Positions 3,077 through 33,758 of a DNA stretch of 64,000 bases are shown piece by piece. Source of the stretch: Bdellovibrio sp. NC01 (lineage in GTDB: Bacteria > Bdellovibrionota > Bdellovibrionia > Bdellovibrionales > Bdellovibrionaceae); the NCBI RefSeq assembly GCF_006874625.1, contig NZ_CP030034.1:806001-870000 (forward strand). The letters run 5' to 3'. Position 1 is the stretch's first letter. The number at the start of each line of letters is the position of its first letter. The notes beneath the pieces are model-generated. The model saw only the letters and a list, made by a program, of their open reading frames with translations, was not told the DNA's origin and ran no database searches. Both the position numbers and the translations under genes were made by a program.

Positions 3077-3270
3077 ATTCTTCTTTCTTTGAGAGTGCGG
3101 GGATTTGCCGAGGCTTTGCATTTTAGCTTTTGCTGCTTCGGCACGGCATCCTGCCTCGTCGCTTCGACGCCAAAGGCGTCGAGGGCCATCCAGGCCCCGC
3201 GAAGGCCTCATACGCAAAAGCTAAAATGCAAAGCCTCGGCAAATTGTGCTTCGAAAGAAGAATAAAAAAA
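3077..3270. repeat. Structured intergenic element, copy 1 (long inverted arms with inner hairpins)
   Basis: A 30-bp perfect inverted repeat pairs 3104-3133 with 3214-3243. Inside its 80-nt loop sits a perfect 8-bp hairpin with an AAA loop (3164-3171/3175-3182), flanked by two weaker ones (3145-3148/3152-3155 and 3183-3187/3193-3197), giving a cloverleaf-like fold. An outer 18-bp perfect inverted repeat (3070-3087/3253-3270) brings in the T-tracts of the two flanking terminators. A related element with the same conserved blocks lies at 29940-30118. It sits between convergent genes. No open reading frame or target-site duplication was seen. Confidence 0.9.
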
Positions 3271-28399: not shown

Positions 28400-29191
28400 A
28401 TGTCGAATCAGCAAAAACCGGCTCCTTGGGACTGGCGCACGAAACATTTTTGGACTGAAGGTTGGGGATCTTTATTCCTTGCTGTGTTCATTGCATTGTT
28501 CATTCGCTGGGGTTTCATTGAGGCTTACGTTATTCCATCAGGCTCGATGCTTCCGTCGCTTTTGATTCACGATCATATCTTCGTGAACAAATTGACTTAC
28601 GGTTTCCGCGTTCCATTCTCTGAAAGCTGGTTGGTTAAATTCAACGAACCAAAACGTGGCGAAGTGATCGTGTTCAAATATCCAAAAGATATGAGCACGT
28701 TCTTCATCAAACGTATCGTGGGTGAACCAGGCGATAAAATTTATTATGAAAACGGCACATTGTACGTAAACGACAAACCAGTCGAAAAGAAAGTTCCTGC
28801 AAATCTAGAGGACTTCGAATGGTTGCGTGATGCGGACTTCACTCGTGATGGCAACATCAACGATGCGAAGAACAACTATGTTGAGTTCACTGAAGCTCTT
28901 CCTCCTGGCAAAGGCGAATCAAAAGGTAAAGACCATGCGATTCTTCTTCGTAAAGGTGATGTTTACGAAACTTTCGGACCTGTGACTGTTCCTGAAGATC
29001 ATTTGTTTGTGATGGGTGATAACCGCATGAACTCTTCGGACAGCCGCGTGTGGGGTTTCTTGCCGAAGCAGAATATTTTGGGCCGTGCGATGTTCGTATG
29101 GTTGTCTTGTGAAGAGACTGTTCCAGCCCTTCCATTCTTGTGTAATCCAACGACAATTCGTTGGGGCCGCTTCTTCCATTCAGTAAACTAA
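28400..29191 (+). CDS. lepB: Signal peptidase I, copy 1
   Basis: 263 aa inner-membrane serine protease that removes Sec/Tat signal peptides. One N-terminal transmembrane helix (about 22-40) is followed by the catalytic Ser49 in VIPSGSMLPSL and the general-base Lys104 in FFIKRIVGEPGD; box E GDNRMNSSDSR is near 213-223. An insert of about 40 residues (DADFTRDGNINDAKNN) lies before box E. It ends with WGRFFHSVN, a motif shared by the other two copies. It lies 4 bp after lepA, with GAGG before the start, and 4 bp before copy 2. Confidence 0.95.
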   Translation: MSNQQKPAPWDWRTKHFWTEGWGSLFLAVFIALFIRWGFIEAYVIPSGSMLPSLLIHDHIFVNKLTYGFRVPFSESWLVKFNEPKRGEVIVFKYPKDMSTFFIKRIVGEPGDKIYYENGTLYVNDKPVEKKVPANLEDFEWLRDADFTRDGNINDAKNNYVEFTEALPPGKGESKGKDHAILLRKGDVYETFGPVTVPEDHLFVMGDNRMNSSDSRVWGFLPKQNILGRAMFVWLSCEETVPALPFLCNPTTIRWGRFFHSVN

Positions 29192-29195
29192 ATAG

Positions 29196-29912
29196 ATGAC
29201 TTCGGAAAATAAACCAAAAAATTTAAAGGGAACGTGGAATCAGGCGATTCTAACGTTCCTTTTTCCTATTCTTTTGGTGTTGGGAGTCCGCTGGGCTTTA
29301 TTTGAACCCTTCGTTATTCCTTCCGGCAGTATGATCCCGAATCTGTTGGTTCATGATCACATCTTGGTAGAAAAATTTGCGTTTGGTGTGCACTTCCCAT
29401 TTAGCGATAAATGGATTTTCCAGTGGCACAAACCAGAACGCGGTGAAATCGTAGTTTTCAAATACCCTGAAAATCCTGAAGTCTATTACATCAAACGTTT
29501 GATCGGTATTCCTGGTGATGAAGTTGTCGTGCAAGACGGTCACATCTCGGTGAATGGTAAAAAGTGGAATCTGGCTCCGTTGTCTTTTCCAGGCGGGGAG
29601 AATGGTTTTGCTTATTATAATGAGGCCCTTGACGGAGGACCTTCACAACACGTGGTGCGCTTCATGACTCCGGAAGTGGTGGATGGTGTTGATCCGAAAA
29701 CCTATAAAGTTCCAGAAGGTCATTACTTCTTCATGGGCGATAACCGCGATCAATCTTCTGACTCTCGTTATTGGGGTTTTGTTAAGAACGATTACATCGT
29801 CGGTAAAGCTTGGCTGATTTGGCTTTCATGCGAATCGACTCTGCCAACGATGACCTTCGTTTGCGATCCCTCGCAACTACGCTGGGACCGTTTCTTCAAA
29901 GTTCTGCGCTAA
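29196..29912 (+). CDS. lepB: Signal peptidase I, copy 2
   Basis: 238 aa. One transmembrane helix about 17-36, catalytic Ser45 in VIPSGSMIPNL and Lys100 in YYIKRLIGIPGD, box E GDNRDQSSDSRYWGF. It is a tandem paralogue of the preceding gene (same frame of motifs, similar C-terminus LRWDRFFKVL) but lacks part of the insert. All catalytic residues are intact, so it should be active; the two may prefer different preproteins or act in different growth phases. It ends at the structured repeat element 29940-30118. Confidence 0.94.
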   Translation: MTSENKPKNLKGTWNQAILTFLFPILLVLGVRWALFEPFVIPSGSMIPNLLVHDHILVEKFAFGVHFPFSDKWIFQWHKPERGEIVVFKYPENPEVYYIKRLIGIPGDEVVVQDGHISVNGKKWNLAPLSFPGGENGFAYYNEALDGGPSQHVVRFMTPEVVDGVDPKTYKVPEGHYFFMGDNRDQSSDSRYWGFVKNDYIVGKAWLIWLSCESTLPTMTFVCDPSQLRWDRFFKVLR

Positions 29913-29939: not shown

Positions 29940-30118
29940 AATGCGGGGATTCGCTGAGGCTTTGGAATTTTGCCTTAGCTTCTTCGGCACACCTTCCGGG
30001 CTCAATCGTCGCCGCAGCTTTGCTGCGGTTCGCGCCATCGTGGCGCCGACGAAGGCCTCATACGCAAAGGCAAAATTCTAAAGCCTCAGCGAATTTGCCT
30101 CGAAGAAATTTTTATTCT
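29940..30118. repeat. Structured intergenic element, copy 2
   Basis: Arms of 28 nt pair 29949-29976 with 30067-30094 with only one G-T mismatch. The loop holds a perfect 7-bp hairpin (30012-30018/30022-30028, loop TTT) and a 6-bp hairpin (30032-30037/30041-30046, loop TCG). Shared blocks with the element at 3077-3270 include TGCGGGGATT at the left, CTTCGGCAC after the left arm and GAAGGCCTCATACGCAAA before the right arm. Where the arms differ between copies the opposite arm changes to keep pairing. It lies between convergent genes, as copy 1 does. No open reading frame of note. Confidence 0.88.
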
Positions 30119-30203: not shown

Positions 30204-31013
30204 TTAGATGTTTGTGATGTCACCTAGTGAACGTTCCAGGATTTCGAATCCTTTGTAGTCGTTTTCTTCGATTGTGAAGGCTTGTAAAACCAACGCGGTT
30301 TTTAACTTTTCTTGCGGCTGAGTTTTTTCTTCATAACTTCCTAATTTCGCAAAAGCCTCGAAAGCCGCTTCTTGTTCTTTAATGAAAGCATTGTAGGTTG
30401 CTTCAGTGACTCGCACGGAATTCATCGACCAGCCTTTGCGAATACCACGTTTTTTTAGGTCAGCGGCTGAATACAAACCTTCTGAGATATTTTGTATGAA
30501 GAAGTCGGCGCCCGATTTGATGAAGTTTTCATAGTATGACTTCGCAAGCATGCCAGCACCCATGGGTGGAATTGATTTGAACGCAGGTTTCACTTTTTGT
30601 TTTGCGTTCACCTTGATCAAGCCGTGCTTTTCTAAACCCATCAGGTATTTATCTGTGGAGCGTTGGTTTAATTTGTACTTCTCTGCAATTTGCTCCGGCG
30701 TGTTTTCATACAGCTTAATGAAGTAAGACAGAAAGCCCTTATTCTTTGCTAAGAATTGTTCTTGCGCCTCTGTGAATTTTTCGGCCTTTTCAGTCGTCAT
30801 TTTAGTCATCGTTTCGAGGTCAGTCAGATTGACGTCTAAAATTTCGCAGAACTGCAGCAAGCGTGACAGAGTTAATTCTTCGTCGCCCAAGATGCGTTTC
30901 ACGGTTGGAACGGAACATTCCAATTCCTCTGCCACGTTTTCGTAAGTCATCTTCTTTTGTTTCAAAAGATCTTTTAGTGCGGCTTTGATTTGCTGAATTT
31001 TGAAGTCGTTCAT
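30204..31013 (-). CDS. Helix-turn-helix transcriptional regulator (XRE-like plus winged-helix)
   Basis: 269 aa from ATG 31013, chosen because AAGGAAC lies 9 nt upstream; a TTG 24 nt earlier would itself include that site. Residues 1-60 form an XRE-type HTH (LLKQKKMTYENVAEELECSV, then PTVKRILGDEE). Residues about 95-125 look like a second, MarR/wHTH-like unit (TPEQIAEKYKLNQRSTDKYL, MGLEKHGLIKV). The C-terminal half (130-269) is helical and may bind a ligand or oligomerise. Cytoplasmic. It is co-oriented with a 50-aa gene 36 bp upstream. Target genes are unknown; the divergent peptidase operon is the nearest candidate. Confidence 0.78.
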   Translation of the reverse strand: MNDFKIQQIKAALKDLLKQKKMTYENVAEELECSVPTVKRILGDEELTLSRLLQFCEILDVNLTDLETMTKMTTEKAEKFTEAQEQFLAKNKGFLSYFIKLYENTPEQIAEKYKLNQRSTDKYLMGLEKHGLIKVNAKQKVKPAFKSIPPMGAGMLAKSYYENFIKSGADFFIQNISEGLYSAADLKKRGIRKGWSMNSVRVTEATYNAFIKEQEAAFEAFAKLGSYEEKTQPQEKLKTALVLQAFTIEENDYKGFEILERSLGDITNI

Positions 31014-31049
31014 GTTCAGTTCCTTTTTTAGATACAAAAGTCGGCGTGC

Positions 31050-31202: not shown

Positions 31203-31447
31203 CGTAAACCCCTTTGTTTCAGGCTTGTCCGTGCATGCCTTGTTTTCCCTAAACTGCCTGAGATCGCAAGGGCTCTCAATGGGTGTTTTTAGGGTATCAA
31301 AAAACGATCTCTTTTTGCAAATATGGTCTTAATATATGCATTTAGTATCTAATTATGATCCCTTACTGGGGTGGCCAATGGCAGGCCAAGTCCCGCGTTT
31401 CAGAATAAGACACCTTGTGTGGCACACGCTTTGGAGCTTGGTTAAGT
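31203..31447. promoter_or_regulatory. Divergent control region between HTH unit and peptidase operon
   Basis: The region has an A/T-rich middle (31300-31360) likely to hold the promoters, and a hairpin TGGCC/GGCCA at about 31373-31389 in the leader of the plus-strand operon. No clear -35/-10 pair could be fixed. The divergent layout would suit control of the peptidase operon by the HTH protein. Confidence 0.35.
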
Positions 31448-32146
31448 ATGGAAAAGATCATAGCTTTCATTTCTATTTTATTTGTGGCTGTTACTGCTTC
31501 TGCAGAGGAACCGTCTGTTTTAGTGTGTCAGCGTCCAATAGTTCAACAGGCTATCGCTTTGGCGCAGAAGACGGTGCAAAGTACACCATACAAAATCAAA
31601 TCGCGTGCAAAGCAAGAAACATCGGATTTGCGCATTGATCTTGCGGCGATCAAACTTTTGGAAAAAACCGTTTTCAAAAAACAGATGTTCGACCTTGGTT
31701 ACGACTTCGTTGTTGGCGCTTCGATCAGTTTTGAAAAAGGCTATACGCCCCTTATCCGTATTTATCCTGATACGATTGCAGAGCTGAATAAACTAGATAA
31801 CGCAGAATACGCACACCTGTTCACGATGGCGCACGAGATGGGTCACATGGTGCAAGGAATTTGGCAGGCGCAAGATCCAAATAAACTAACACCGCATAAA
31901 ATGGTTTCTTTAGATGGTAACGTCGACAACTACAATCGCTGGCATTCTGAAACGGACTGCTTCGGGGTTGAGCTCATGTACCAAGCGGGTGTTCGCGATT
32001 TTTCGGCAGTGATTCCAGCACTCGATTCAATTAGAAAAGATTGTTATTCCCTACGTGAAAAAGAATTCTGTGACAGTGCTTTTGCAATGCGTGCGCACGC
32101 TGTACAGCTCTATTTACAAAACAATCCAGAACTTACGAAAAGATAA
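31448..32146 (+). CDS. Secreted zinc metallopeptidase-like protein
   Basis: 232 aa from ATG 31448, which gives a clean signal peptide (residues 1-20, ending ASA-E); an in-frame start 33 nt upstream would spoil it. The zincin motif is MAHEMGH (His129, Glu130, His133), and HSETDCFGVEL at 166-176 supplies Glu168 as likely third zinc ligand, the arrangement of gluzincins related to the neutral zinc metallopeptidase group. Periplasmic or extracellular. The next gene, a papain-like peptidase, starts directly after its stop codon. Predicted active, since all three ligands and the catalytic Glu are present. Confidence 0.78.
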   Translation: MEKIIAFISILFVAVTASAEEPSVLVCQRPIVQQAIALAQKTVQSTPYKIKSRAKQETSDLRIDLAAIKLLEKTVFKKQMFDLGYDFVVGASISFEKGYTPLIRIYPDTIAELNKLDNAEYAHLFTMAHEMGHMVQGIWQAQDPNKLTPHKMVSLDGNVDNYNRWHSETDCFGVELMYQAGVRDFSAVIPALDSIRKDCYSLREKEFCDSAFAMRAHAVQLYLQNNPELTKR

Positions 32147-33020: not shown

Positions 33021-33758
33021 GTGTCTTTACCGCAAAGATTCTCTGGTCTACTTGATAAAAATTTAGTTAAGATTTTCTTTATGACCCGATGGCGTGAGTA
33101 TTTTCTAACATTGCTAATTGCAGTGCTGTTTGCATTGTTTGTGCGCACGTACGTGGTCACAGCTTATAAAGTTCCAACTGGTTCGATGCAACCGACGTTG
33201 AAGCCGGGCGATTTTATTTTCTCTTCGCGCATGTCGTATGGTTTAGAGATCCCGTTTACTTCCAAAAAAGTTGATACCTCTTTTCCAGAGCGTGGCGATC
33301 TTGTCGTGTTCAGTTACCCGAATCAGCCTGAAATCAATTATGTGAAACGCGTGGTGGGTTTGCCTGGTGATCGCGTGCAGGTAAAACAAGGTCGCTTGAT
33401 TTTAAATGAAGAACCGTTTGAGTATGAAAAAGCGGAACTCGCAAAACGCGATAATCCCAACTCAGAACTTTTCGATATTTATACCGAGAAGAGCAAACTC
33501 TCTAGCTGGCCGGTGATTTTCCAAAAACAAGCGGAAGACAAAGATTTTGGTCCCATCGTTGTGCCTCCTGGAGAGGTTTTCCTTTTAGGTGACAATCGTG
33601 ATGCAAGTGACGACTCGCGCTATTGGGGCACGGTTCCTGCCACTCAAGTCCTCGGTAAAGTCGTTTTGATTTGGCTTTCGCTGGATTGGCAAAAGAAATG
33701 GGGCGGAAACCGTTATCCTTCAGTGCGTTGGAGCAGAGTTTTTTCTTCAGTCCATTGA
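33021..33758 (+). CDS. lepB: Signal peptidase I, copy 3
   Basis: 245 aa with a GTG start at 33021 (weak ribosome site; ATG 33081 is a possible later start just before the transmembrane helix). One helix about 27-45, catalytic Ser55 in KVPTGSMQPTL (T in place of the usual S before G), Lys109 in INYVKRVVGLPGD, box E GDNRDASDDSRYWG. The C-terminus VRWSRVFSSVH echoes the other two copies. It is separated from them by 3 kb and a change of strand, and is followed 35 bp later by pyrB. Confidence 0.93.
   Translation: MSLPQRFSGLLDKNLVKIFFMTRWREYFLTLLIAVLFALFVRTYVVTAYKVPTGSMQPTLKPGDFIFSSRMSYGLEIPFTSKKVDTSFPERGDLVVFSYPNQPEINYVKRVVGLPGDRVQVKQGRLILNEEPFEYEKAELAKRDNPNSELFDIYTEKSKLSSWPVIFQKQAEDKDFGPIVVPPGEVFLLGDNRDASDDSRYWGTVPATQVLGKVVLIWLSLDWQKKWGGNRYPSVRWSRVFSSVH

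What the first reader, a model, noticed from the sequence alone, without database searches (positions are those of the whole stretch)
29940..30118. Second copy shows compensatory changes in the arms
Seen: copy 2 keeps the flanking blocks TGCGGGGATT, CTTCGGCAC and GAAGGCCTCATACGCAAA, but its arms differ from copy 1 (for example GCCGAGG/CCTCGGC becomes GCTGAGG/CCTCAGC, and the arm ends differ), with both sides changing to keep pairing. The inner hairpin changes fully in sequence but keeps a 7-8-bp stem and 3-nt loop. This is covariation between two paralogous copies and argues that structure is maintained. Both copies sit between convergent genes in the same orientation.
Basis: partly seen in the sequence, partly recalled or inferred. 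Interest (0 to 1): 0.72.

Follow-up and report, generated by a model that had tools for sequence, protein, structure and literature searches.

The report
Transposon-derived palindrome with self-rewriting arms
The repeat is one of 26 leftover ends of an IS1-like jumping gene in this Bdellovibrio genome: a long hairpin whose two arms change together, which in related species still sits right behind an intact transposase gene and next to the stop codon of a host gene.

Summary
Confirmed and extended. Window 29940-30118 is a real ~170-nt branched palindrome; copy 1 is at ~3096-3262. This genome has 26 copies; 22 of 24 Bdellovibrio-genus genomes have them. Covariation is strong: core cells with both sides changed 309, shuffled mean 85; arms pair far better than swapped arms. 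(2) Mode: arms change in blocks and coordinated indels with few G.U intermediates, so arm-to-arm copying is likely part of the cause. (3) Identity: copies with identical arms led to a full insertion sequence in a related species: an intact 290-aa distant IS1-like transposase, this structure just after its stop codon, terminal repeats and 9-bp target duplications. Five of 6 full-length close transposases carry the structure, 0 of 16 distant ones. The right end usually abuts a host stop codon (20 of 24). This genome has no such transposase; copies persist as solo ends, some at the same loci in several species. Molecular function is inferred, not shown.

The parts
29943..30106 (-). Copy 2 (the finding): whole palindromic module, conserved box to conserved box; selected fold on the minus strand
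29943..29951 (-). left conserved box GCGGGGATT (3' box on the minus strand)
29949..29981 (-). left variable arm
29982..30065 (-). conserved branched core, type A (model R1, 101.8 bits)
30012..30028 (-). variable inner hairpin CCGCAGC-TTT-GCTGCGG
30032..30046 (-). conserved hairpin, loop ACGAU read on the minus strand
29991..30001 (-). hairpin with a GGA-containing loop read on the minus strand
30066..30095 (-). right variable arm
30090..30106 (-). right conserved box (5' box on the minus strand; follows the transposase stop codon in intact relatives)
3096..3262 (-). Copy 1: same module with a type B core (core 3136-3215)
29196..29912 (+). host gene, signal peptidase (lepB); its stop codon ends 69 nt before the core
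30204..31037 (-). convergent neighbour gene, HTH regulator

Best explanation
The element is a solo 3' end of an IS1-like insertion sequence of the genus Bdellovibrio. In intact relatives the order is: left terminal repeat, transposase gene, about 5-40 nt, this structured module, right terminal repeat; the right repeat lies a few nt beyond the stop codon of a convergent host gene. The module's strand is the transposase-coding strand, the minus strand in the window. There it folds into a 25-40 bp stem carrying a junction with three hairpins. Inferred mechanism: it forms the 3' end of the transposase transcript and closes it off from the host gene that runs towards it. Its core is kept by selection for that fold. 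Its arms only have to pair, and drift quickly because one arm is rewritten from the other (palindrome-templated copying) as well as by compensatory selection. In this genome the transposase is gone and the ends remain at 26 places. Shown: repeat family, covariation, strand asymmetry, linkage to transposase, terminal repeats, position at stop codons. Inferred: transcript-end role, arm copying, how the solo ends lost the rest.
For: 26 copies here, 22 of 24 genus genomes. Near-identical paralogs in G012 and G009 extend into a transposase gene. Intact 290-aa ORF in L340, NCBIfam IS1 transposase E 2.1e-11. R1 core follows the stop codon in 5 of 6 full-length close transposases, 0 of 16 distant ones, 3 of 8 fragments. 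9-bp direct repeats read by eye at L350 (GAAGTGATC) and L351 (GAGTGCTTT). Right repeat 4-17 nt from a convergent host ORF end in 20 of 24 loci with a recognisable repeat (of 39 looked at); random positions 2.5%, intergenic-like 7.4%. Core covariation. Strand: new one-sided mismatches in one pair per orthologous cluster, plus-strand G.T 4 against A.C 24 (p 1.8e-4) and Y.Y 29 against R.R 4 (p 1.1e-5). Rewriting: L307/L315 13 double, 3 single, 8 unchanged of 24 at 96% flank identity; L118/L121 8 double, 0 single; coordinated indels in L149/L150.
Against: No transcript of the minus strand is known here; the one HD100 attack-phase sRNA that overlaps a copy (APsRNA6) is on the plus strand of the element, assuming G005 is HD100 with the same coordinates. 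No shared promoter-like motif lies 5' of the minus-strand fold. Several solo copies sit between terminators of both neighbours, so they may not be transcribed (by eye). Only 5 of 174 copies keep a plausible terminal repeat. L351 has the arms but not the core; L348 shows no target duplication and L362 an imperfect one. G.U pairs are rare (8 of 1854 core cells), which is odd for an RNA. The IS1 match is below the curated cut-off (44 against 100 bits). The stability difference between strands is small (minus better in 104 of 176).
Confidence: 0.6

Rival explanations
1. Single-stranded DNA substrate: the bottom strand folds as DNA and is recognised by an enzyme, as for integron attC sites or REP/RAYT hairpins; RNA plays no part.
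For: Almost no G.U in the core (8 of 1854 cells); double changes are not dominated by transitions (44 against 63); strand-specific fold; position just after a gene, as attC; some copies between two terminators.
Against: The linked transposase is IS1-like with terminal repeats and 9-bp duplications, which by established knowledge act on double strands; 0 of 7 RAYT loci examined have a copy; G007, G012 and G016 have copies but no Y1_Tnp match.
Confidence: 0.2
2. Domesticated host element: solo copies now serve as 3'-end or antisense RNA elements of host genes and are kept for that. (Compatible with the IS origin.)
For: 38 orthologous clusters hold 106 of 177 copies, for example behind fusA in five species, while terminal repeats have decayed; this genome has no transposase match.
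Against: Copies are gained and lost: the lepB copy is absent at the best lepB locus of all 23 other genus genomes; decayed copies L266 and L274; host genes are unrelated to each other.
Confidence: 0.3
3. Neutral long palindrome: arms stay complementary only because replication template switching corrects them; no selection.
For: Block-wise and indel changes in both arms; one-arm block difference L301/L310.
Against: A strand-symmetric process does not predict the mismatch asymmetry, the conserved junction with loops, or fast decay of the terminal repeats but not of the core.
Confidence: 0.12
4. Intrinsic terminator or REP-like 3' stabiliser acting in the host mRNA (plus strand).
For: Sense ORF ends within 150 nt of the core in 129 of 176 copies, median 63 nt; one plus-strand sRNA overlaps a copy.
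Against: Tolerated mismatches favour the minus strand; no U-tract follows most copies and several hosts have their own terminator before it (by eye).
Confidence: 0.1

Closest known systems
IS1 family insertion sequences (NCBIfam NF033558, Pfam DDE_Tnp_IS1)
   Same: N-terminal zinc-binding and HTH regions, weak DDE_Tnp_IS1 match at the C terminus, 9-bp target duplication
   Different: Profile scores below cut-offs, single ORF, a large structured 3' module, right end at host stop codons
MITEs and solo transposon ends
   Same: Many non-coding copies derived from one IS, intergenic
   Different: Terminal repeats missing in nearly all copies while an internal structure is conserved with covariation
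REP/BIME elements with RAYT
   Same: Palindromes at gene 3' ends, inverted pairs between convergent genes
   Different: About 170 nt, branched, hypervariable arms, linked to an IS1-like transposase and not to Y1 transposases
Integron attC sites
   Same: Hairpin with arms variable in sequence, read on the bottom strand, directly after a gene (recalled)
   Different: No RYYYAAC/GTTRRRY boxes seen, no cassette arrays, host genes are ordinary
IS110 bridge RNA and IS200/IS605 omega RNA (PMC11208160 seen in a search listing only; rest recalled)
   Same: Structured non-coding segment beside a transposase gene
   Different: Different transposase family; no guide-target match was tested

Membership tests
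IS1 family | IS1 transposase profile above curated cut-off | tested here: not met
   NF033558 44.1 bits against 100; DDE_Tnp_IS1 16.7 against 24.1
IS1 family | 8-9 bp target duplication | tested here: inconclusive
   clean 9 bp at L350 and L351, imperfect at L362, none at L348 and L338; the IS1 value is recalled
IS1 family | insA/insB frameshift pair (recalled) | tested here: not met
   single 290-aa ORF
MITE | terminal inverted repeats of the parent at both ends | tested here: not met
   left side 7 of 174 (5 plausible), right side 0 of 174
REP/RAYT | repeat flanks or co-occurs with a Y1 transposase | tested here: not met
   0 of 7 RAYT loci examined; three genomes with copies have no PF01797 match
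Integron attC | R boxes and integrase | tested here: inconclusive
   boxes not seen by eye; integrase not searched
Rfam RNA families | match to any of 4227 models | tested here: not met
   no match over the element at E 1
Structured RNA or ssDNA | covariation beyond shuffles | tested here: met
   0 of 500 shuffles reach the observed covariation score

The most novel reading that the evidence does not exclude
The module is a functional RNA of an IS1-like transposon that works with its transposase to place the element at stop codons: a DDE insertion sequence that finds gene ends with the help of a structured RNA whose stem is constantly rewritten.
Probability: 0.08. Interest if true: 0.92.

Novelty: new variant of a known kind. 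Interest (0 to 1): 0.6.

Why it matters
It ties a dispersed structured repeat to a mobile element that lands at gene ends, in a model predator genus. It also offers a natural system in which two origins of covariation can be separated: selection, and one-step copying of one arm onto the other. That distinction matters because covariation is often taken as proof of a functional RNA. The stop-codon placement of the IS family, seen in several genera, makes a question of target choice testable.

Tried and rejected
Rfam, phage, plasmid and viral collections: nothing. RAYT as mobiliser: searched PF01797 in 39 genomes and R1 at 7 RAYT loci; no link. A promoter upstream of the minus-strand fold: none seen. 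lepB loci as empty sites: synteny too poor to read a junction; L137/L140 in G002 also unreadable. A G.U control on tRNAs failed, 0 usable tRNAs, so the statement that G.U is unusually rare rests on general knowledge. The first strand test over whole arms was not significant (150 against 176) because conserved box positions dominate; it became clear when limited to positions 12-36, a choice made; the ortholog tests use the same window of positions but new mismatches. Clusters were reduced to the closest pair; 36 of 38 clusters had enough positions. Automatic gene calls are rough. A first count of gene context suggested orientation bias, but convergent regions are uninformative; tandem regions give L+R+ 25 against L-R- 12. 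In 17 of 17 loci with two copies the order is plus then minus; several of these are orthologs. Literature searches showed no report of this repeat or IS in their listings; only PMC3627812 was opened (passages and section 16).

Full report
Observation. The described feature is there. Copy 2 runs from about 29943 to 30106 and copy 1 from about 3096 to 3262; the named blocks, arm changes and inner hairpins are as stated, both fold far better than 200 shuffles (z -8.7 and -9.4), and both lie between convergent genes. A core model (R1, 84 positions, built from 23 own copies) finds exactly these two in the window.

Family. The genome (one contig, 3,975,853 bases) has 26 copies. Among 39 genomes, 22 have copies, all in the same genus, which is 22 of its 24 members; 0 of 15 others. 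A wider sample of 290 genomes of the phylum gave 22 with a match at E 1e-5: 20 of the genus, one of another genus of the family (3 weak matches) and one weak match elsewhere. The genus is Bdellovibrio: the nearest named relative of the neighbouring lepB is a Bdellovibrio MAG, whose contig has the same length (10858) as the G009 contig holding its lepB. G005 has the length of B. bacteriovorus HD100 (recalled).

Structure and covariation. On 70 diverse cores read on the minus strand, a structure that I drew by hand from this alignment (27 pairs) is paired in 94.7% of 1854 cells; 21 of 27 pairs have changes on both sides; 309 cells are double changes (shuffled mean 85); covariation score 0.421 (shuffled 0.113 +/- 0.007; slid partners at most 0.083). 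Relatedness is not removed by the shuffles, but the slid controls keep it. The arms of 176 of 177 collected copies pair over about 40 positions at 89%; median score 53 against 13 for arms taken from different copies.

Strand. In the inner arms (12-36 nt from the core) the 26 own copies have on the plus strand 2 G.T against 28 A.C, and 30 Y.Y against 0 R.R; 150 other copies 35 against 96 and 238 against 14. Read on the minus strand these are G.U and purine.purine, the better tolerated kinds. Some of these mismatches are a fixed motif shared by descent, so I repeated the count on mismatches new between orthologs, one closest pair in each of 36 clusters: 4 against 24 and 29 against 4. Whole-arm counts without the position limit gave no G.T/A.C bias. 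The minus strand is also slightly more stable (104 of 176).

How the arms change. 109 orthologous pairs form 38 clusters holding 106 copies. One pair per cluster (36 clusters): 613 unchanged, 107 changed on both sides and still paired, 61 one-sided, 53 shared mismatches, 22 other; double changes are 44 transitions and 63 transversions. Among all pairs with flanks at least 82% identical: 945, 229, 118, 78, 49. L307/L315 replaced most of both arms at 96% flank identity; L149/L150 changed length in both arms; L301/L310 share the left arm but differ in 7 of 24 right-arm positions. I read this as copying of one arm onto the other, added to selection; the direction of the L301/L310 event is not known because the outgroup L062 has other arms.

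Identity. Searching for non-orthologous copies with the same arms gave near-identical paralogs in G012 (L070, L329, L332) and G009 (L069, L327). Their similarity runs far beyond the element on one side, into a transposase gene. L340 holds an intact 290-aa ORF, distantly IS1-like (NF033558 E 2.1e-11, below cut-off; DDE_Tnp_IS1 E 0.0099). In the genus 14 of 24 genomes match it; this genome does not. Of 30 loci, the core follows 5 of 6 full-length close transposases, 0 of 16 distant ones and 3 of 8 fragments, two of which are one element. The module lies on the transposase-coding strand, which agrees with the strand test made before this link was known (then). Ends read AAACTGATC..., with 9-bp direct repeats at L350 and L351; others are imperfect or lack them.

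Target. In 24 of 39 loci I recognised the right repeat; in 20 of these an ORF of at least 80 codons on the opposite strand ends 4-17 nt from it (counted from 6 nt inside the repeat; at least two of the sites are orthologs). At random positions 2.5% and at intergenic-like positions 7.4% do so within 17 nt. Distant relatives have no such module: the gap from stop codon to right repeat is 2 nt in nine loci, and a short hairpin stands there in L359 and L368. For the repeat copies, 129 of 176 have a sense ORF ending within 150 nt before the core, median 63, against 71 of 175 on the other side. All 17 loci with two copies have them plus then minus, as expected if each abuts its own gene.

Persistence. 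Only 5 of 174 copies keep a plausible terminal repeat (7 by pattern), so the structure outlasts the ends. Some copies are shared by several species, such as the one behind fusA in five. Others come and go: no copy at the best lepB locus of 23 other genus genomes (paralogous lepB genes may blur this), and decayed copies in G005 and G002.

Function. The best-supported reading is a transposon 3' module that closes the transposase transcript against the oncoming host gene. That role is inferred from position and strand. Against it: no transcript of that strand is known; the one published sRNA that overlaps a copy, APsRNA6 of HD100 (Table 2 of PMC3627812), lies on the other strand; and G.U pairs are very rare. 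A DNA role, or later use by the host, remains open.

Noticed in passing
L141 (G005:C1:1339157-1339242, +): Lies inside APsRNA6 of B. bacteriovorus HD100 (1,338,787-1,339,441, +; PMC3627812 Table 2), if G005 is HD100 in the same coordinates.
   Followed up: partly
L353-L368, L373, L378-L400: A wider IS1-like transposase family is common in the phylum (100 of 290 genomes) and also sits at host stop codons, without the big module.
   Followed up: partly
L109, L110, L111, L113 and L094, L148, L152, L153: Inverted pairs of copies between convergent genes recur at the same place in four species each.
   Followed up: partly
L027 and L049 (window copies 2 and 1), L046: Related arms but different core types (A against B), as if cores and arms were exchanged between copies.
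   Followed up: no
L091:1488-1634, L094:2362-2510, L044:1501-1615: Cores with extra sequence inside (115-149 nt instead of about 84).
   Followed up: no
L351 (G019): Full transposase followed by the paired arms but with the core replaced by other sequence.
   Followed up: no
window 28400-29912 and about 33030-33700: Three signal-peptidase-like genes close together (repeats D1, D2, D8).
   Followed up: no
G000 contig 1, 0.2-1.2 Mb: Copies are clustered: 18 of 26 lie between 0.2 and 1.2 Mb of the contig.
   Followed up: no
window 31379-31503: Weak match to an Rfam lncRNA model, below the gathering score, surely chance.
   Followed up: no
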